Part shown: positions 20,537-29,839 of the stretch, piece by piece
Layout: every line of letters begins with the position of its first letter
How positions within the stretch are numbered: position 1 is the stretch's first letter
Notes under the pieces: model-generated
Told to the model about the DNA's origin: nothing
The model's database searches: none
Seen by the model: the letters and a program-made list of their open reading frames with translations, nothing else
Program-made: the position numbers and the translations under genes
NCBI RefSeq assembly: GCF_000833575.1
Contig: NZ_CP010827.1
Coordinates: 1,120,980 to 1,184,979 of the forward strand
Direction: 5' to 3'
Length of the DNA: 64,000 nucleotides
Origin: Corynebacterium singulare
Lineage (GTDB): Bacteria; Actinomycetota; Actinomycetes; Mycobacteriales; Mycobacteriaceae

Positions 20537-23500
20537 ATGGCATCAGACCGTCAGAAGGACGCGGCCCGTCACCGCTCCACATCCGGCATCGCAGTGGTCT
20601 CCGCGATCGCCGTTGCGTTGGGCACCGCCGCCATTATTCCCGGCGTGTACAGCCAAGGAAACAAAGCTGAGGTTTCAGACATCCAGCAGGTAGCGGACGC
20701 GCAGTTCACCGGCGGTATCCGAGGAACCGATGGCAGCGGGGCCATCGAGCGTGCGGAGCAGTTAGCCTCCGATATCGGTGCCGGCAGCTGTACGGTCGGT
20801 TTCAGTGGCCAGCAAGGAAGCAAGGGTGGCTTTAGTTTCTCCGTTCAGGAACCGAGCAATACTTCCCCTAACAAGCGAGAATTCGGCGTAAACGTCAAAA
20901 TGGATAGTTCTAAAGATAGAACTTGGACCGATTTTGTAGTTACGGGCTCAAATAATAAAGCTCCGGTGACTCTTCATGACGTTGCTGCGATGGCGCCGGG
21001 CGATGAAGTTGGCGGTGAGAACATCACCGATTCGACCTCGTCAGTGATGTCTATTAACAAAGCAGGGCGACAACCTAAAACTGCAACTATTGCAGCAGAT
21101 TTAAACGATGATGACATCGCCGCAGCTGCTTCTGAGAGTGGTGTGTCCTACGGTTGGAAGGATTACTATACGGAGGACAATGATGTAAAAGACAAGCAAA
21201 TTTTCAATGTGGCTGATGCTTCAGTCTCGTTCAACCCGTGGCCGAGCGAGAACATCGAATGTAACCCCATCACGGTGTCGTGGGAGTCTTTCGAGAAGCA
21301 TGTGATCGTGCCTGGAGAGGAGACGAAGGTCGGCACCGTCAACGTCCCCAAGCTGTCTAAGAGCAACCACGAGGACTCGTTGCCCACGGACGACTCGTTG
21401 TCCCGCATGGTCGTAGAAGCCTATGACGGCAACCGCAAGTTCATCGGCACCTCAGACCCAGCAGCGTCCGGTGGTGAGCAGCTCCTGCGTATCGACGAAA
21501 CGACCGGTGACATCTACTTCACCTGGCCAGAGTACCGCGGTACCGACCTGGCTACCGACAAAAACGTGAATTTCTCCGTTCTGGCGAAGCCACGTACCGT
21601 GGACCAGCTCCAGACAGCCGCTACGCACAACAGCGAATTTGGTCGCGCATTCGACAGCTCGAACTCGCTGACGCGCTACAACACGGCGAACGTCATCGAC
21701 TCAAAAGCGTTCTCCCTGGACGATACCGAGTACCACGATCCGAAGTACGACAAAACAGACGCTTCGATCATCTCGGGCGTCGATAGTGCTACCGGCCCGC
21801 TGGCTACCGAGCCACAGAAGGTCACCTTCACCCAGGTACCAGATCTGATCAAGGAACTGGCGAAGAAGAAGAGCGAGGGCGGCTTTGAAGCTGAGGTGAC
21901 CCTCGACGAGAAGTACGTTTACGAGGGCTGGTCCGTGGAGATGGACGAGGACTACAACGTCACCGTCACCGCTCCGGATACTCCGCGCCCAGGCACCTTC
22001 GCCCGCCCTGTCGTAACAGTGGAGTACTCCAACGGCTCCACAGACAAGCTCGAACTGCTCGTCGTTGTCGACCCGAACAACACCCAGGTCACCGACCTGG
22101 TGCGCCCGGATCTGACGAAGGGAAAGATTGGCGATGACCTGACCGCGCAGGTGGGCACGAAGCCCATCATGAAGGGGCATTCCCCAGTCCACCCAGCCAA
22201 GTTTGAGATCGACCCGTCCACTGTTCCTGAAGGGTGGACCGTCACCGTCGATGAGACCGGCAAGGTCACCGCGAAGGCTGACGACACCGTTTCACCGGGC
22301 ACCATCATCACCCCGAAGGTGAAGGCGACCTACCCGGACAAGACCACGGACGAGATCGAGACCCAGTTCCAGGCGATCGTCGACATTAAGATCCCTGACT
22401 ACGACACCGTCACCAATAAGCCGACCGCCAAGGTCACTCTCAAGCCCGCGATTCCCGAGCGTGGCCTGAGCGGCAACACGGCCGATGAAGCTCCGAAGCG
22501 TTACACCTTCCCGGAAGGCAAGACGGAGTACACCCACACGGATGACAGCGGCACGTGGACCGTCAAGATCAACGAGAACACTGGTGAAATCTCCACGACC
22601 ATTCCGAAGACCGCACCCGAGGGCTACATCCTGGACGTCCCAGTCCTCGCGTACTACGACAACGTTGACAAGCCGCAGCAGGTGAAGGGCACCGTCGTTG
22701 TTCTGAAGAGCGACATCTCTCCGACGTACTCCGTTGAGTCCACCGGCCCGAATCAGGCTGTGAACCACAACGTCCAGGACGCCCCTAAGGGTTCGAAGTT
22801 CTCTTTCGGCAATGATGAGAACGGCGCACCGATCACCGAACAGGAAGTCGACGGCTGGAAGTACACGGTCGACCCGAACACGGGTGTCGTTTCTTCCACC
22901 CCGCCAGCAGATGCCAAGCCGGGTGACAAGAAGACCATCAACGTTACTGTGACGACGCCGGACGGCTCCACCCCGCTGGCGCCTGTCACCACCGTGGTGA
23001 ACCTGACCAACAATTGGGAAGCCGATCCGACCTATCCTAAGGAAACGGTTTACCCGGGTGGAACCGCGAAGTTGCCGGTGACTCTCGAAAAGCCGGAGAA
23101 CGTCCACGTCGCAAAGGATAGCCCCTACAAGTTGGGCACCATTCCCGATGGCTGGACCGTGACCATCGACGACAATGGCCAGATCACCGCAACCGCACCT
23201 GCGGATGCGAAGCCGGGCGACCAGGTCAAGCTTCCGGTCACCGTGACCTACGAGGACGGCTCTACCGACACCGCTTACGCAGTAGTGAACGTTGTTGACG
23301 TGCCGACGCGTGAGATGCCGTTCGACGTCGAGTACAAGTACGATCCCACCATTCCTGCTGGCGAGTACAAGGTTGAAACCAAGGGCGAGCCGGGCTCGGA
23401 GAAGATGAACGAGGATGGCACTTGGAAACAGACCAAGGCACCGATTAACGAGGTCGTCCTCGTCGGCACGAAGCCCGCTGAGGCCGCCGAGGATGTCACT

Positions 23501-24352
23501 TGGAAGGTCCCGATCCCGTACCCGACCGAGGTTCGCGAGAACCCGGACCTGGCACCTGGCGAGACCCGGGTTGTTCAGGAAGGCGAGAACGGCGAGAAGA
23601 CCTACACCGCCAAGTTCACCGCCACGGGCTCCGAGGCACAGGTCGCTAAGGAAGAGACCACCAAGGATCCTGTCAAGAGGATCGTAGAGTACGGCCCGGG
23701 CCTTGCTCCGAGCGAGCTGGTGACCAAGACTGAGAAGCCAATTCCGTTCGAGACCAAGGTTGTCTTCGACGACACTCTCGAGGCAGGCGAGCAGGTTGTT
23801 GACCAGAAGGGTGAAGTTGGTACTGAGGTTGAAACCTCGATTCAGAAGATCGTGGACGGGAAACCTTCTGGTGACCCGACGGTGACGACTGAGCGCACCA
23901 AGGAGCCGACCAAGCAGATCATTCGTGTGGGCACCAAGACCACCGGTACTACCACCGAGACAGTTACGTCTGAGGTTCCGTTCGGTGTGAAGGTCGAGTT
24001 CGATCCGAACTTGCCGGCCGGTACGTCTGAGGTTGTGACCGAGGGCAAGCCAGGTAAGAAGACCACCACGGTGACCCAGAAGGTCACCAACTCCCAGCCG
24101 GATGGCGAGGCCACCGTGGAGGAGAAGATCACCGAGCAGCCTGTCGATCAGGTCATCAAGGTCGGCACCAAGCCGTCCGAGGCCTCCGAGAAGGTCACCT
24201 GGACTGCCCAGGTTCCGTTCGAGGTTATTACCCGACCGAACCCGGAACTGAAGCCGGGCGAGATCAAGGTCGTCCAGAAGGGCGTGCCCGGTGAGAAGAC
24301 CTACAGTGCTGACTTCTCTGCCAAGGGTGACCAGGCAACTGTGACCCCCTGA
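20537..24352 (+). CDS. Giant cell-wall adhesin, N-terminal part (frameshifted)
   Basis: 1,271 residues before a premature TGA. ATG 20537 has AGGAAGGA nine bases upstream. Domains in order: signal peptide (about residues 1-40), a unique head of about 400 residues with few repeats, about four to five Rib/YPDG-like beta domains (22000-23290; motifs such as ATYPDKTTDE and VTYEDGSTD, each preceded by G-W-T-V-T-V-D), then G5-like repeats from about 23310. The stop falls inside the fifth G5-like repeat because of an extra C in the C5 run at 24345-24349; the remainder is encoded in the next frame. As it stands it lacks a wall anchor and would be secreted or lost. Confidence 0.85.
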   Translation: MASDRQKDAARHRSTSGIAVVSAIAVALGTAAIIPGVYSQGNKAEVSDIQQVADAQFTGGIRGTDGSGAIERAEQLASDIGAGSCTVGFSGQQGSKGGFSFSVQEPSNTSPNKREFGVNVKMDSSKDRTWTDFVVTGSNNKAPVTLHDVAAMAPGDEVGGENITDSTSSVMSINKAGRQPKTATIAADLNDDDIAAAASESGVSYGWKDYYTEDNDVKDKQIFNVADASVSFNPWPSENIECNPITVSWESFEKHVIVPGEETKVGTVNVPKLSKSNHEDSLPTDDSLSRMVVEAYDGNRKFIGTSDPAASGGEQLLRIDETTGDIYFTWPEYRGTDLATDKNVNFSVLAKPRTVDQLQTAATHNSEFGRAFDSSNSLTRYNTANVIDSKAFSLDDTEYHDPKYDKTDASIISGVDSATGPLATEPQKVTFTQVPDLIKELAKKKSEGGFEAEVTLDEKYVYEGWSVEMDEDYNVTVTAPDTPRPGTFARPVVTVEYSNGSTDKLELLVVVDPNNTQVTDLVRPDLTKGKIGDDLTAQVGTKPIMKGHSPVHPAKFEIDPSTVPEGWTVTVDETGKVTAKADDTVSPGTIITPKVKATYPDKTTDEIETQFQAIVDIKIPDYDTVTNKPTAKVTLKPAIPERGLSGNTADEAPKRYTFPEGKTEYTHTDDSGTWTVKINENTGEISTTIPKTAPEGYILDVPVLAYYDNVDKPQQVKGTVVVLKSDISPTYSVESTGPNQAVNHNVQDAPKGSKFSFGNDENGAPITEQEVDGWKYTVDPNTGVVSSTPPADAKPGDKKTINVTVTTPDGSTPLAPVTTVVNLTNNWEADPTYPKETVYPGGTAKLPVTLEKPENVHVAKDSPYKLGTIPDGWTVTIDDNGQITATAPADAKPGDQVKLPVTVTYEDGSTDTAYAVVNVVDVPTREMPFDVEYKYDPTIPAGEYKVETKGEPGSEKMNEDGTWKQTKAPINEVVLVGTKPAEAAEDVTWKVPIPYPTEVRENPDLAPGETRVVQEGENGEKTYTAKFTATGSEAQVAKEETTKDPVKRIVEYGPGLAPSELVTKTEKPIPFETKVVFDDTLEAGEQVVDQKGEVGTEVETSIQKIVDGKPSGDPTVTTERTKEPTKQIIRVGTKTTGTTTETVTSEVPFGVKVEFDPNLPAGTSEVVTEGKPGKKTTTVTQKVTNSQPDGEATVEEKITEQPVDQVIKVGTKPSEASEKVTWTAQVPFEVITRPNPELKPGEIKVVQKGVPGEKTYSADFSAKGDQATVTP

Positions 24353-26040
24353 AGAGAAGCAGACCAAGGATCCGGTCGACGAGATCATCGAGTACGGCCC
24401 AGCCGCTGAGGACACCTCCGTGGTGACCAAGGTTGAGAAACCTGTTCCGTTCGAAACTGAGATCGTCTTCGACAACACCCTCAAGGAGGGCGAGCAGAAG
24501 CTTGATCAGCAGGGTGAGACTGGTACCGAGGTTGTCACTTCGACTCAGAAGATCAAGGACGGCAAACCGGACGGCGATCCGACCGTCACCACTGAGCGCA
24601 CCAAGGAGCCGGTCAAGCAGATCATCCGCGTTGGTACCAAGACGGAGGGGGAGACTTCCAACTCCGTAGAAACCGAGGTTCCGTTCGGCGTGAAGATTGA
24701 GTACGACCCGACGATTCCTGCAGGTGAGTCCGAGGTGGTTACCGAGGGCAAGCCGGGTAAGAAGACCATCACCGTGACCCAGAATGTCACCAACTCCAAC
24801 CCGGATGGCGAGCCCACTGTGGAGGAGAAGGTTACCGAGCAGCCGGTGGACCAGGTCATCAAGGTCGGCACGAAGCAGGCTACTGCCACCGATACGGTGG
24901 AGTGGACTGAGCCGATTCCGTATGGAACGACCGTGCGCCCGAATCCGGATCTTGCTCCTGGTGAGACCAAGGTGGTCCAGGAAGGCAAGAATGGTGAGGC
25001 TTCGTACACCGCTACCTTCACGGGAACCAATGGCAAGGCAGAAGTGACCGAAGCCAAGGAACGCACGGAACCCGTTGAGCGCATCGTCGAGTACGGTCCG
25101 CAGGCCGAGGATACGTCGGTAGTGACGAAGACCGAGAAGCCGGTGCCGTTCGAGACCGAGATCATCTTTGATGACACGTTGAAGGCGGGCGAGCAGGTCG
25201 TCGATAAGCAAGGTGAACTCGGTGCCGAGGTTGAGACCTCCACTCAGAAGATTGTCGACGGCAAGCCTTCTGGTGAGCCGACTGTGACCACCGAGCGCAC
25301 CAAGGAGCCGACCAACGCGGTCATCCGCGTGGGAACCAAGACCGAGGGCACGAACACCACCGAGTCCGAGGTTGAGGTTCCGTTCGAGACCGAGATTCAG
25401 TTCGACGATTCCCTGCCTGCTGGCACCCAGGAGACCGTCCAGGAGGGCAAGCCGGGCAAGGATAAGGTCACCACGACTCAGACCATCGAGAACTCGAAGG
25501 TTACGGGAACGCAGACCACAACTGAACGCGTTGAGGAGCCGGTCAAGAAGATCATCAAGGTCGGCACCAAGGGTGAGACCACCTCTAAGACCGTTGAGTG
25601 GACTGAGAGCACCCCGTTCGAGGTTGAGGTTCGCGAGAACCCTGATCTCAAGGCCGGCGAGACCAAGATTGTTCAGGAGGGCAAGCCGGGCGAGGTCAAG
25701 CACACCGTCACGGTGACTTCTGATAACGGTGACATCACCACGGACGATTCGACTGAGACCATCAGCGAGCCGACCAAGCAGATCATCGAGGTTGGTACCG
25801 CACCTTCCCAGACTGAGCTGAGCGATAAGCACACCGAGCAGCTGCCGTTTGAGACGATCATTGAGGTTGATCCGAACCTCGAGGCCGGCAAGGTCATTGA
25901 GGACCAGGCAGGTTCCTTCGGTGAGAAGGAAGTAACCAAGGTTTGGAAGCTGAAGGATGGTGTAGCCGTAGGCGACCCGGAGACGACTGAGAACGTCACC
26001 AAGGAGCCGACCCCGCGTAAGCTCCGCATAGGTGCCAAGA
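23498..26040 (+). repeat. About 700-bp super-repeat of three G5-like domains
   Basis: The first domain type of each triplet starts with a Trp-containing segment (W-K-V-P, W-T-A-Q, W-T-E-P, W-T-E-S) near 23498, 24197, 24899 and 25598, a spacing of about 700 bp (233-234 codons). Each is followed by an EKPVPFET-type domain and an EVPFGV-type domain. The last unit is shorter and more divergent. Confidence 0.75.
24345..24349 (+). other. Frameshift site: C5 run inside the adhesin gene
   Basis: The upstream frame reads GTG-ACC-CCC-TGA. With four instead of five C it would read GTG-ACC-CCT-GAA-GAG and pass into the frame that is open to 28109. Comparison with sister repeats confirms that V-T-P-E-E-K is the expected sequence. 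Either slipped-strand variation, a fixed mutation or a sequencing error. Confidence 0.85.
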
Positions 26041-28109
26041 CCGTCACGGAGACCCAGAAGGTTACCGAGACGGAGAAGGTTACCGAGACGAACAACACCA
26101 CGACGACCGTGACTGAAAAGGAGCCGGCACCGGCCCCCGCGCCGCAGATCGAGCGTTCTTTCTACGGTGTCCAACTGGTCAAGCCTGGCCAGTCTGAATC
26201 CCAGGATGTCAAGAACCACACGGACGGCAACACCTATGAGGTGCCGTCGGATGTTGATGGTTGGAGCGTCTCTGTTGATGAGAACGGCAAGGTGACGGCG
26301 ACCGCACCGTCGACAGCAAAGTCTGGCGACTACATTGAGGTCCCAGTAACGGTGACCCCGAAGGATGGCAAGCCGTACGTGACCAACGCGGTGTTCATCG
26401 TCAAGGAGGACGCACCGATTGTGCCGCCGGAGCCGAGCGACCCAGAGGTCATCACGGCGCCGACCTACAACCCGGACGTCATCAAGGCTGGTGACACCAA
26501 GACGGTTGGTATCAACTACGGTCACACCGAGGGCAACACCTACGAGTTGGGTGAAGTTCCGTCTGGCTGGATTGTAACCATTGATGAGTCCACCGGTGAG
26601 CTGACGGTAACCCCGCCGGCTGACACCCCGAGCGGCACCATCAAGGAGATTCCGGTGAAGGTCACCACCAAGGATGGCGAGGTCTTTAACATCAAGACCG
26701 TCATCGGTGTGGTCAGTGATAACTGTGGTTGCGAACCGGTAGAGCCAGTTGAACCGACTGAGGATCCGAGCGAGGAACCTGGTAACACGGACAACAATCC
26801 GAAGCCAGAGCCAAACGATCCGGAGGTGCCAGCGGATCCGACCGGTGGCAGTGAGGAGCCGAATCCAGCGCCGGGTACTACCCCGACTGAGGATCCAACC
26901 GAGGACCCGACCGAGGACCCGACCGAGGACCCGACCGAGAACCCGACCGAGAACCCGACCGAGGACCCGACCGAGAACCCGACGGTTACCGTTACGGTCA
27001 CTGAGGATCCGTCCAAGCCGACGCCGAGCGACGAGCCTAAGCCGACGAAGGAGGACCCGACGCCGTCTGGTGAGAACCCAACTGTGACGGTTACTGTGAC
27101 CGAGACGCCGAACCAGCCGACCACGGATACTAAGCCGTCAGAGGGGCCGAAGGACCCAACTACGGACCCGAAGGACCCAACCGAGGACCCGACGCCGTCT
27201 GGTGAGAACCCAACTGTGACGGTTACTGTGACCGAGACGCCGAACAAGCCGACCACGGATACTAAGCCGTCAGAGGGGCCGAAGGACCCAACTACGGACC
27301 CGAAGGACCCAACCGAGGACCCGACGCCGTCTGGTGAGAACCCAACTGTGACGGTTACTGTGACCGAGACGCCGAACCAGCCGACCACGGATACTAAGCC
27401 GTCAGAGGGGCCGAAGGACCCAACTACGGACCCGAAGGACCCAACCGAGGACCCGACGGTTACCGTTACGGTCACTGAGGATCCGTCCAAGCCGACGCCG
27501 AGCGACGAGCCTAAGCCGACGAAGGAGGACCCGACGCCGTCTGGTGAGAACCCAACTGTGACGGTTACTGTGACCGAGACGCCGAACAAGCCGACCACGG
27601 ATACTAAACCGTCAGAGGACCCGACCAAGCCAGCCGAGCCAAACGACCCGGACGAGCCAGGTACCCCAGAGGTTGACGGACTGTGGCCGGTACTCATCCC
27701 GCTGGTCCTGGTACCTGCGGTTCTTGGACACATCATGAACCAACCGCACAACCCGGCAGCGCCGGCGCAGCCGGCTAAGCCGCTGAAGCCGGAGACCCCG
27801 AAGGACGCGGTGGAGCAGCTGAAGCCGCAGGATCCCAAGGCTCCGAGTGAGGCAGAACAGCCGAACTCGATTGAGTCCAACGATGTTGAGTCCAAGGATG
27901 TTGAGTCCAACGATGTTCAGCCGAGCCAGAGCGACAACACCAGCCGCTACACTGGCACAAGCCCGAACACGACGGATTCCAACAAGAGCACCAACTCTGG
28001 TCTTCTAGCCAACACTGGTGCGAACGTCCTTGGCCTTCTTGCCGCAGGCCTAGCACTTATCGCTGGTGCCGCGCTGCTGCTGCGCCCTGGTCGCCGCAAG
28101 GAATCCTAG
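24420..28109 (+). CDS. Giant cell-wall adhesin, C-terminal part with LANTG anchor
   Basis: Continuation of the adhesin; its frame is open from 24348, and it has no signal peptide or ribosome binding site of its own, so it is not an independent gene. It encodes the end of G5-like repeat 5 and repeats 6-12 (to about 26040), one or two Rib-like domains (26150-26720, with GWSVSVDENGKVTATAPS and GWIVTIDESTG), a Cys pair NCGC, a Pro/Thr/Asp/Glu stalk (26740-27660), a hydrophobic patch, a Ser/Asn-rich spacer, and the sorting signal LANTG. G5 domains are known from Aap/SasG-type adhesins that mediate zinc-dependent cell-cell adhesion and biofilm. With one base removed the whole gene (20537-28109) encodes 2,523 residues. 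Confidence 0.85.
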   Translation: MVTKVEKPVPFETEIVFDNTLKEGEQKLDQQGETGTEVVTSTQKIKDGKPDGDPTVTTERTKEPVKQIIRVGTKTEGETSNSVETEVPFGVKIEYDPTIPAGESEVVTEGKPGKKTITVTQNVTNSNPDGEPTVEEKVTEQPVDQVIKVGTKQATATDTVEWTEPIPYGTTVRPNPDLAPGETKVVQEGKNGEASYTATFTGTNGKAEVTEAKERTEPVERIVEYGPQAEDTSVVTKTEKPVPFETEIIFDDTLKAGEQVVDKQGELGAEVETSTQKIVDGKPSGEPTVTTERTKEPTNAVIRVGTKTEGTNTTESEVEVPFETEIQFDDSLPAGTQETVQEGKPGKDKVTTTQTIENSKVTGTQTTTERVEEPVKKIIKVGTKGETTSKTVEWTESTPFEVEVRENPDLKAGETKIVQEGKPGEVKHTVTVTSDNGDITTDDSTETISEPTKQIIEVGTAPSQTELSDKHTEQLPFETIIEVDPNLEAGKVIEDQAGSFGEKEVTKVWKLKDGVAVGDPETTENVTKEPTPRKLRIGAKTVTETQKVTETEKVTETNNTTTTVTEKEPAPAPAPQIERSFYGVQLVKPGQSESQDVKNHTDGNTYEVPSDVDGWSVSVDENGKVTATAPSTAKSGDYIEVPVTVTPKDGKPYVTNAVFIVKEDAPIVPPEPSDPEVITAPTYNPDVIKAGDTKTVGINYGHTEGNTYELGEVPSGWIVTIDESTGELTVTPPADTPSGTIKEIPVKVTTKDGEVFNIKTVIGVVSDNCGCEPVEPVEPTEDPSEEPGNTDNNPKPEPNDPEVPADPTGGSEEPNPAPGTTPTEDPTEDPTEDPTEDPTENPTENPTEDPTENPTVTVTVTEDPSKPTPSDEPKPTKEDPTPSGENPTVTVTVTETPNQPTTDTKPSEGPKDPTTDPKDPTEDPTPSGENPTVTVTVTETPNKPTTDTKPSEGPKDPTTDPKDPTEDPTPSGENPTVTVTVTETPNQPTTDTKPSEGPKDPTTDPKDPTEDPTVTVTVTEDPSKPTPSDEPKPTKEDPTPSGENPTVTVTVTETPNKPTTDTKPSEDPTKPAEPNDPDEPGTPEVDGLWPVLIPLVLVPAVLGHIMNQPHNPAAPAQPAKPLKPETPKDAVEQLKPQDPKAPSEAEQPNSIESNDVESKDVESNDVQPSQSDNTSRYTGTSPNTTDSNKSTNSGLLANTGANVLGLLAAGLALIAGAALLLRPGRRKES
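27059..27454 (+). repeat. 132-bp tandem repeat in the stalk
   Basis: The junction GACGCCGTCTGGTGAG recurs at 27059, 27191 and 27323, a period of 132 bp (44 codons), with near-identical sequence between. A further copy begins at 27533 after a 78-bp insertion that itself repeats 26982-27058. Just upstream (about 26884-26980) an 12-bp unit encodes Pro-Thr-Glu-Asp/Asn repeats. The protein has T-V-T-V-T-V-T-E alternating with P-x-D-P-T blocks. Confidence 0.85.
28005..28109 (+). other. LPxTG-type sorting signal (LANTG)
   Basis: L-A-N-T-G is encoded at 28005-28019, followed by a hydrophobic helix (about VLGLLAAGLALIAGAALLL) and the basic tail RPGRRKES. Corynebacterial sortases accept LPxTG and LAxTG. 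The coding end up to the stop at 28107-28109 is inside the duplicated IS target. Confidence 0.88.
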
Positions 28110-28172: not shown

Positions 28173-29839
28173 CCTGACTTGGCTCAAATTAGTGCCGAAG
28201 GGTTGGGGTGGTGATGGTGTTGACGAGGGTTTGGATTTCCGGGGGTAGTGGTACGGCGGCGTGGACGGTTTCGCCACCAATGACGAGTTGAAAGCTGCGG
28301 TATTTCTTGAGTGTTCTCACGAGGCGCTTGATGGATTGACCACTGCGGGTCTCCATCAGGTGGGCCACGGCTAGGGCTGCCATCACAATATGGAGATGTG
28401 CTGTGATCGAGTCTTGTTTCCTGGCGTAGATTGGGCGTGCTTTCAGGTCTGATTTCGACATCCGAAACGATTTCTCAATGTTGAATAACCTGCGGTAATG
28501 CCCGATAACCTCCTGGGCGTCAAGAGCGGTCAGGTCGGTTTCATAGCCTTTGATCCCGGCTAGGGCTCGGTGTTTGGCAGCAAGAGCGTAGTTGACCTTC
28601 TTGTTCGGGGCGGAAAGATCGATATAGCGGTTACGCTTGATAGCGATATCGCCGTCAACAGCCCGTTTAGCTTTTGCGACTTGCTCTTTGATTCCGCGCA
28701 GGCTGCGCCTAGCCCGATCGTGGGAGTACTGGTAATGCGTCACCGTATTCGGGGTTGTGTGTTTGCGCCCATCGCTTGCCGAGGCTTGTGTCCAGATCTG
28801 GCCGTGGGCGTAGTCTTCACCGGGGTTTTCCCGCCGCCAGGTTTCAATCACCTCAGGCACGGTGGGGGTTTTCACCGACACAATGTAGTGCAGACCTGCA
28901 TCAATGAGTGCTTGTTTGTTCGCCGCGGAGAACATCCCCGCATCAGCAACGACGGTGACCTCGTCGAGCTGGTAGGCCTCTTGGAACCGTGTGATCATCG
29001 GCAGCATCGTGTGGGTTTCAGCCGAGTTGCCAGCAAACGCGCCCACATGCAGTGGAAACCCGGTGGCATCAGTAAGCAGCCCAACAAGGATTTGTGGCTC
29101 TACACGGCGCTCTTTGGAAAACCCGGGTTTGCGAAGCTCATCAGGAGTATCGGTTTCAAAGTACAAGGTGGTCACGTCGTACAAAATAAAAGTACCTGGC
29201 CCGATACCTGCATGATGCGCCAGCACTTGGGTTAATCCTTCGCCGAAGGCATCTGTAGCAAAGCCAGGCAGTCGGCGTTTAATCGTGGCGTAGCTTGCGC
29301 TTGTCACCCCAACTTCAGCAAGGGTTTCGATCGAATCAAACTTCGAGCCAGGATTAATCAACCGGGCACGCACCAGATCGCGAAACACCGGATCATCACC
29401 GCTTGCTGCAGCAAGACCTAACTCGTTGAAACACGCATCAATACAGTCCAACAAGTAACCAGCTCGCTGTGCTGTCACCGGCACCGGGTCATCAGCAGTT
29501 CCCCTGCTTGCTGAAGGCTCTACTCCAAGATCAAGGGTGAGTTGATCTGCATCAATAAGACGCCGGGCCTGGGCTTTAAGCTGCTCAACTTGATCAGGTG
29601 AGTGCCCTGATCCGACCTGTTGAAGCTTTTTCGACCCCCGATGCTCAGACCACACCACCTGCACCGCCGTCGCCCCGGAAGCGGTCTTGACAGTGCGAAT
29701 GTATGGACTCACAAAATCAGACTACCGGCTACCCCCGCCGATACCCGCTTAGTGCCGAAAAAACAACCACCACAACACCAAACCCCCAGGCCACAATGTC
29801 AAGGGTGACCTTCATCACCTAACCGTGAGCCAAGTCAGG
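28173..29839 (-). mobile_element. IS1634-family insertion sequence, 1,667 bp
   Basis: Ends are perfect 14-bp inverted repeats: CCTGACTTGGCTCA at 28173-28186 and TGAGCCAAGTCAGG at 29826-29839. One transposase gene fills the element. The flanks carry an exact 79-bp direct repeat. Long, variable target duplications are a known peculiarity of the IS1634 family (including IS1549), and the transposase belongs there, so both lines agree. The exact duplication and intact transposase suggest a recent insertion. An 11-bp direct repeat TTAGTGCCGAA occurs inside near both ends (28189 and 29749). Confidence 0.93.
28189..29712 (-). CDS. IS1634-family DDE transposase
   Basis: A full-length 507-residue DDE transposase of the IS4 superfamily. 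LYDVTTLYFET (about residues 177-187) holds the first catalytic Asp, VVADAGMFSAANK (about 258-270) the second, and YRRLFNIEKSFRMSK (about 414-428) the Y-x6-E-x6-K form of the IS4 YREK signature; YREK's Arg is shifted to the positions next to Tyr. No frameshift or internal stop was seen, so it is probably active. It starts at GTG 29712 and is transcribed towards the adhesin gene. Confidence 0.93.
   Translation of the reverse strand: MSPYIRTVKTASGATAVQVVWSEHRGSKKLQQVGSGHSPDQVEQLKAQARRLIDADQLTLDLGVEPSASRGTADDPVPVTAQRAGYLLDCIDACFNELGLAAASGDDPVFRDLVRARLINPGSKFDSIETLAEVGVTSASYATIKRRLPGFATDAFGEGLTQVLAHHAGIGPGTFILYDVTTLYFETDTPDELRKPGFSKERRVEPQILVGLLTDATGFPLHVGAFAGNSAETHTMLPMITRFQEAYQLDEVTVVADAGMFSAANKQALIDAGLHYIVSVKTPTVPEVIETWRRENPGEDYAHGQIWTQASASDGRKHTTPNTVTHYQYSHDRARRSLRGIKEQVAKAKRAVDGDIAIKRNRYIDLSAPNKKVNYALAAKHRALAGIKGYETDLTALDAQEVIGHYRRLFNIEKSFRMSKSDLKARPIYARKQDSITAHLHIVMAALAVAHLMETRSGQSIKRLVRTLKKYRSFQLVIGGETVHAAVPLPPEIQTLVNTITTPTLRH

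What the first reader, a model, noticed from the sequence alone, without database searches (positions are those of the whole stretch)
24345..24349. A +1 frameshift in a C5 run splits a giant adhesin gene
Everything downstream continues the same repeat protein in the next frame without its own start signals. Removing one C joins 20537-28109 into a 2,523-residue wall-anchored adhesin. A homopolymer inside a surface gene is the classic form of a phase-variable switch: in this state the product would lack its anchor and be secreted or degraded.
Basis: partly seen in the sequence, partly recalled or inferred. Interest (0 to 1): 0.78.

Follow-up and report, generated by a model that had tools for sequence, protein, structure and literature searches.

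The report
Frameshift splits a Corynebacterium wall adhesin
A very long surface-adhesion gene in a Corynebacterium is cut in two by a shift of reading frame; relatives carry the same gene cut at other places, so this looks like one more recent loss (possibly a leaky one) and not a purpose-built on/off switch.

Summary
An Aap-like, G5-repeat, LANTG-tailed adhesin of a Corynebacterium reads from ATG 20537 to TGA 24350-24352, just after a C5 run (24345-24349). The same repeat protein continues without a stop in the +1 frame to 28109. Of 179 homologous proteins held, 90 carry the motif across this place unbroken.

The switch interpretation is not supported. C5 is an everyday run here (321 C/G runs of 5 or more in 400 compared frames), the gene is not enriched in such runs, and relatives are broken elsewhere by other lesions. 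Of 43 Corynebacterium genomes with the gene, 12 are broken, 26 whole and 5 unscorable; neighbouring kgd is split in 1 of 43.

The downstream piece is as constrained as the upstream one (dN/dS 0.19 and 0.18), so the break is recent, reversible, or an assembly error, which only reads can exclude. The genome has NucS and no MutS match; NucS is reported not to correct 1-2 base indels. The lesion creates CCC_UGA, a known +1 slip site, so the null may leak some anchored protein (untested).

The parts
20537..24352 (+). Piece 1 of the adhesin gene: ATG to TGA, 1271 residues, export-type N-terminus (by eye), pAdhesive_10, 4 RibLong and 5 G5 stretches
   Evidence: listed in the protein database as P0002, 1271 aa
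24345..24349 (+). C5 run at which the homologous reading frame changes
24347..24352 (+). CCC_TGA: premature stop and potential +1 slip site leading into the frame of piece 2
   Evidence: sequence; slip behaviour of CCC_UGA from passages of PMC5009743; not tested here
24351..28109 (+). Piece 2 of the adhesin gene in the +1 frame: 7 G5 and 2 RibLong stretches, Pro/Thr/Glu-rich stalk, anchor; no further stop in 1252 codons
24408..24422 (+). GAGGA followed by GTG at 24420: possible but unlikely restart; letters set by the repeat motif
   Evidence: sequence; ORF 24420-28109
28005..28019 (+). LANTG sorting motif, followed by hydrophobic stretch and basic tail
   Evidence: by eye; five sortase matches elsewhere in the genome

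Best explanation
A real, recent frame-disrupting change at the C run has made a near-null allele of an Aap-like, G5-repeat, sortase-anchored adhesin. Translation stops at UGA 24350 and gives a 1271-residue exported protein without the outer repeats, stalk and LANTG anchor, so it would be secreted or degraded (inferred). It is one of many independent breaks of this gene in the genus, as expected of a long, intermittently needed surface gene in bacteria whose NucS mismatch repair is reported not to correct 1-2 base indels. Because the lesion creates CCC_UGA and a +1 slip leads into the right frame, a small share of ribosomes may still make anchored protein (inferred, untested). Shown: the split and its place, unbroken homologs, breaks elsewhere in relatives, similar constraint on both pieces, NucS without MutS. 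Inferred: that the allele is real, the fate of the product, the leak.
For: Split at the run. 90 of 179 homologous proteins unbroken through the site. 12 of 38 scorable Corynebacterium genomes broken, at different places, against kgd 1 of 43, Fisher p 4e-4. Piece 2 has no further stop and dN/dS 0.19 against 0.18 for piece 1. NucS present, MutS_V not found; NucS of M. smegmatis does not repair 1-2 bp indels (PMC11551767, passages).
Against: No reads and no second isolate of the species were available, so neither the allele's reality nor its fixity is shown. The controls are core genes, which a dispensable gene would exceed anyway. Some broken relatives may be assembly faults (G173 and G075 also have a split control gene; G236 is 77% complete).
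Confidence: 0.55

Rival explanations
1. Assembly or consensus error in the C run; the cell's gene is whole.
For: The break is a frame change in a homopolymer, the commonest kind of consensus error (general knowledge); piece 2 shows no other lesion and no relaxed constraint; no read data here.
Against: One-contig genome scored 100% complete. 7 of 416 compared frames switch in this genome, and none of the other six has a C/G run of 5 or more within 60 bases, so runs of this length are not systematically misread. The gene is also broken in 11 other genomes.
Confidence: 0.2
2. Phase-variable switch: the C run gains and loses bases often enough to turn the anchored adhesin on and off in a population.
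For: Homopolymer in a surface gene; both pieces still constrained; no MutS match, and NucS reported inactive on 1-2 base indels; relatives broken at a G7 and at a G5 run (G136, G161).
Against: C5 is short and common; gene and family not enriched in C/G runs; no relative is broken at this place; several lesions are nonsense codons or lie outside runs. Published tract surveys look at longer runs (longer than six in PMC4746626, passages).
Confidence: 0.15
3. Programmed +1 ribosomal frameshifting at CCC_UGA makes two products, one secreted and one anchored, by design.
For: CCC_UGA is used for +1 frameshifting in tsh of Listeria phages and slips at 15% in E. coli pheL (PMC5009743, passages); the direction fits.
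Against: Not conserved: 90 of 179 homologous proteins hold the motif in one frame. No unusual structure in the 100 nt after the stop (z 0.00). No Shine-Dalgarno-like stretch directly upstream (by eye).
Confidence: 0.04
4. Two separate genes, the second starting at GTG 24420.
For: GAGGA lies 7 nt before that GTG.
Against: Piece 2 begins inside a G5 unit and has no export region; 90 of 179 homologous proteins are continuous through the site; piece 2 itself is not among the 120 listed of 1473 proteins found.
Confidence: 0.02

Closest known systems
Aap-like protein of Corynebacterium aurimucosum ATCC 700975 (cauri_1006; PMC2830990, passages)
   Same: G5 repeats and a LANTG sorting motif in a related Corynebacterium
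   Different: Described with five G5 domains and no frameshift mentioned in the passages seen; here 12 G5 stretches lie in two frames
Frameshifted pilus genes of C. diphtheriae, such as spaC (PMC5683216, passages)
   Same: Surface genes of the genus lost by frameshift in some strains
   Different: Pilus tip genes, not G5 adhesins; strain comparison was available there
Homopolymer-tract phase variation (P. acnes tracts in PMC4746626, passages; mycobacterial phase variation mentioned in PMC11551767, passages)
   Same: C/G homopolymer inside a gene of an actinobacterium
   Different: Here a run of five, not conserved in place, and no polymorphism shown
+1 frameshifting at CCC_UGA (Listeria phage tsh, E. 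coli pheL; PMC5009743, passages)
   Same: Same codon pair and same direction
   Different: Site not conserved among homologs and no stimulating element found

Membership tests
G5-repeat wall-anchored adhesin (Aap kind) | Repeated G5 domains | tested here: met
   5 in piece 1 and 7 in piece 2
G5-repeat wall-anchored adhesin (Aap kind) | Export signal at the N-terminus and sorting signal at the C-terminus | tested here: inconclusive
   Both visible by eye, no predictor run; they lie in different frames, so one product cannot hold both without a frame change. Five sortase matches in the genome
G5-repeat wall-anchored adhesin (Aap kind) | Adhesion or biofilm function | not testable with these tools
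   needs experiment
Homopolymer phase-variable gene | Tract unusually long for the genome | tested here: not met
   C5; 321 C/G runs of 5 or more in 400 compared frames
Homopolymer phase-variable gene | Tract or break at the same place in relatives | tested here: not met
   None of the other broken copies is broken there, judged from the contexts
Homopolymer phase-variable gene | Length polymorphism within the species or a culture | not testable with these tools
   one genome per species held; no reads
Programmed +1 frameshift | Shift-prone codon pair with the new frame open | tested here: met
   CCC_TGA at 24347-24352, downstream frame open 1252 codons
Programmed +1 frameshift | Stimulating signal upstream or downstream | tested here: not met
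   100 nt downstream fold no better than shuffles, z 0.00; upstream only judged by eye
Programmed +1 frameshift | Site conserved among homologs | tested here: not met
   90 of 179 homologous proteins hold the motif in one frame
Long-standing pseudogene | Further lesions or relaxed constraint beyond the break | tested here: not met
   no further stop in 1252 codons; dN/dS 0.19 against 0.18; only an old break would show in this test

The most novel reading that the evidence does not exclude
The lesion is a leaky OFF state. In a NucS-only bacterium, unrepaired indels silence long adhesins at scattered places, and this one lands on CCC_UGA, so +1 ribosomal slippage keeps a few per cent of anchored adhesin: a translational hedge between secreted and anchored forms created by a single mutation.
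Probability: 0.1. Interest if true: 0.55.

Novelty: new member of a known kind. Interest (0 to 1): 0.33.

Why it matters
It shows that a frameshift in a homopolymer of a surface gene need not be a switch. The comparison across the genus turns one broken gene into a measurable pattern: this adhesin is broken about six times as often per codon as two control genes (with a rough mean gene length), in bacteria whose mismatch repair is reported to ignore small indels. Whether those losses are decay, selection against the adhesin or slow switching can be tested by population sequencing.

Tried and rejected
Phase switch at C5: rejected as the leading reading because of run statistics and the different break sites in relatives. 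Programmed frameshift: rejected because the site is not conserved and no stimulator was found. Insertion sequence as the cause: rejected, since the IS1634-family element begins 64 bases after the gene's end and lies outside it. Same-species comparison: not possible; one genome per species is held, and the cluster of piece 1 (P0002, clustered at 90% identity) has 2 member sequences on 1 contig, the window's own. Species name: not found; named relatives with the adhesin include C. minutissimum and C. aurimucosum. Paper searches: 'CCC UGA' with 'frameshifting' and 'phage' and 'G5 domain' with 'Corynebacterium', 'LPXTG' and 'frameshift' found 0 papers in that library; I claim no absence from print. 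Structure prediction was not used.

Weak points of the census: it scores one copy per genome, the one closest to the query; some of the 43 are distant relatives (for example G063, G142, G160, G236); G161 has a second, whole copy; G153 has a second, whole copy but is counted unscorable; G186 and G223 have a further family-like frame downstream and were counted whole (only G223's end was looked at). G173 and G075 have a split control gene, so their breaks may be assembly faults. In the Lhr control, 14 genomes show one or two stops inside the match but an open frame of at least 1564 codons; I counted them unsplit as matches running past the gene end, without checking each one. The frame comparison holds an artefact of mine: joining two G016 stretches doubled one base, and one of the 6 switches counted in G016 lies at that join. 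The six other switches in the window's genome were looked at only by their surroundings and may be gene starts or ends. The 400 compared frames were chosen for aligning over at least 60%, so they are unbroken by choice and may include shadow frames.

Full report
What is there. At 20537 an ATG opens a reading frame with an export-type N-terminus (by eye), one pAdhesive_10, four RibLong and five G5 stretches, which stops at TGA 24350-24352 directly after C5 at 24345-24349. The +1 frame is open to 28109 with seven more G5 and two RibLong stretches, a Pro/Thr/Glu-rich stalk and a LANTG, hydrophobic and basic tail (tail by eye).

Is it one gene? Each piece was mapped separately to relatives' proteins; 91 shared junctions put the end of piece 1 and the start of piece 2 at the C run. 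Of 179 homologous proteins held (178 from the searches, and one translated from L049; the window's own two records left out), 90 carry the motif across the site unbroken; the others were not examined for other wordings of the motif. Intact copies exist, among them a 2423-residue protein whose cluster has 18 member sequences (P0123) and a C. minutissimum protein open for 2402 residues on a contig that lacks the gene start. The GTG at 24420 with GAGGA before it would give a product without an export region.

Is C5 special? No. 459 kb of this genome hold 154 C5 and 321 G5 runs on the plus strand; 400 frames that align with the relative G016 carry 321 C/G runs of 5 or more over 398 kb. The split gene has 3 such runs where 6.1 are expected (P of 3 or fewer 0.14), and the family has 0.35 per kb against 0.81 per kb. 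In relatives a C run of five at the same place is in frame in 2 of 30 copies (25 loci, some genomes counted twice). The study of homopolymer tracts in Propionibacterium acnes scanned for repeats longer than six (PMC4746626, passages).

Relatives. The N-terminal part was found in 43 of 242 Corynebacterium genomes. Reading frames were looked at in all 43. Broken: 12 (G000, G015, G016, G033, G075, G082, G116, G136, G146, G161, G173, G236). Whole: 26. Not scorable: 5 (runs of N in G073 and G157; contig ends in G115, G153 and G159). The lesions are two nonsense codons (G015, G082), a shift at G7 (G136), one at G5 (G161), two in G016 (one in a triple heptamer), and shifts without an obvious run; G116 has lost most of the gene. 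Outside the genus, L039 (Actinobaculum) and L044 (Trueperella) are also shifted. Judged from these contexts, no other break lies at the window's place.

Controls. kgd is split in 1 of 43 (G173). The Lhr-like helicase (name recalled from the sequence, not tested) is split clearly in G075 and possibly in G129, of 42 scorable, G223 being cut by contig ends. Adhesin 12 of 38 against kgd 1 of 43: Fisher p 4e-4; against both controls 3 of 85, p 4e-5; after dropping G000, G075, G173 and G236, 8 of 34 against 0 of 39, p 0.0014; about sixfold per codon, taking 2,100 codons as a rough mean adhesin length. The controls are conserved genes, so the excess fits dispensability or selection as well as it would fit switching.

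Assembly. Compared with G016, 7 of 416 frames switch in this genome, this gene among them, and 6 of 410 switch in G016, one of them an artefact of my joining. None of the other six in this genome has a C/G run of 5 or more within 60 bases. A single error at 24345 remains possible without reads.

Age. Against C. minutissimum, dN/dS is 0.18 for the last 817 codons of piece 1 and 0.19 for the first 800 codons of piece 2 (0.21 and 0.26 for 300 codons on either side); kgd gives 0.036. There is no clear sign of long relaxation after the break, so it is young, reversible or not real.

Mechanism. The genome has one NucS match and no MutS_V match (the MutS_V search rings in 11 of 14 control genomes, the NucS search in 7 of 14 including C. 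glutamicum). NucS of M. smegmatis does not repair 1-2 bp indels, and its authors link this to mycobacterial phase variation (PMC11551767, passages). The lesion creates CCC_UGA. A review reports +1 shifting at CCC_UGA in tsh of Listeria phages, 15% in E. coli pheL, 1.9% in Salmonella, and above 1% in half of 19 E. coli genes ending so (PMC5009743, passages). In this genome 2 of 400 compared frames end in CCC TGA. A slip at 24347 leads into the downstream frame. No structure beyond shuffles (z 0.00), no adjacent Shine-Dalgarno-like stretch (by eye) and no conservation support a programmed event, so leakage is the furthest I would go; it is untested.

Verdict. An ordinary kind of event, a frameshift in a surface gene, now well documented. 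C. aurimucosum ATCC 700975 encodes an Aap-like protein with G5 domains and a LANTG motif (PMC2830990, passages), and frameshifted pilus genes are described in C. diphtheriae (PMC5683216, passages). What lifts it slightly is the recurrent, scattered breakage across the genus and the accidental slip site.

Noticed in passing
window 28173-29839: IS1634-family element with 14-bp perfect inverted repeats (28173-28186, 29826-29839) and transposase 28189-29712 on the minus strand, 64 bases past the adhesin end; three other copies at 86% identity in the genome. The C. minutissimum locus L049 has only about 0.4 kb between adhesin and kgd.
   Followed up: partly
window 21233-24638; L034: The adhesin DNA of Gulosibacter hominis, from another order by recalled taxonomy, is 86% identical to the window over 3.4 kb, against 82% over a longer span in C. 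minutissimum; Trueperella and Actinobaculum copies are 84% over 2.7 kb. This suggests horizontal transfer of the gene among skin actinobacteria.
   Followed up: no
L071 about 5500: A heptamer repeated three times in a row sits at one of the two frame changes in the adhesin of G016: a possible slippage site.
   Followed up: no
L055 about 4400: The adhesin of G155 carries an in-frame G9 run in an open frame of 2745 codons: a better candidate for a variable tract than the window's C5.
   Followed up: no
G173: This genome splits kgd as well as the adhesin, so its assembly may hold frame errors.
   Followed up: partly
window 24264-27137 (minus strand): Long open frames on the strand opposite the adhesin (957 codons stop to stop), probably shadows of the repeat's codon usage.
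   Followed up: no
window 24351-28109: Piece 1 is in the protein database as a 1271-residue protein (P0002), but piece 2 is not among the 120 listed of 1473 found with it.
   Followed up: no
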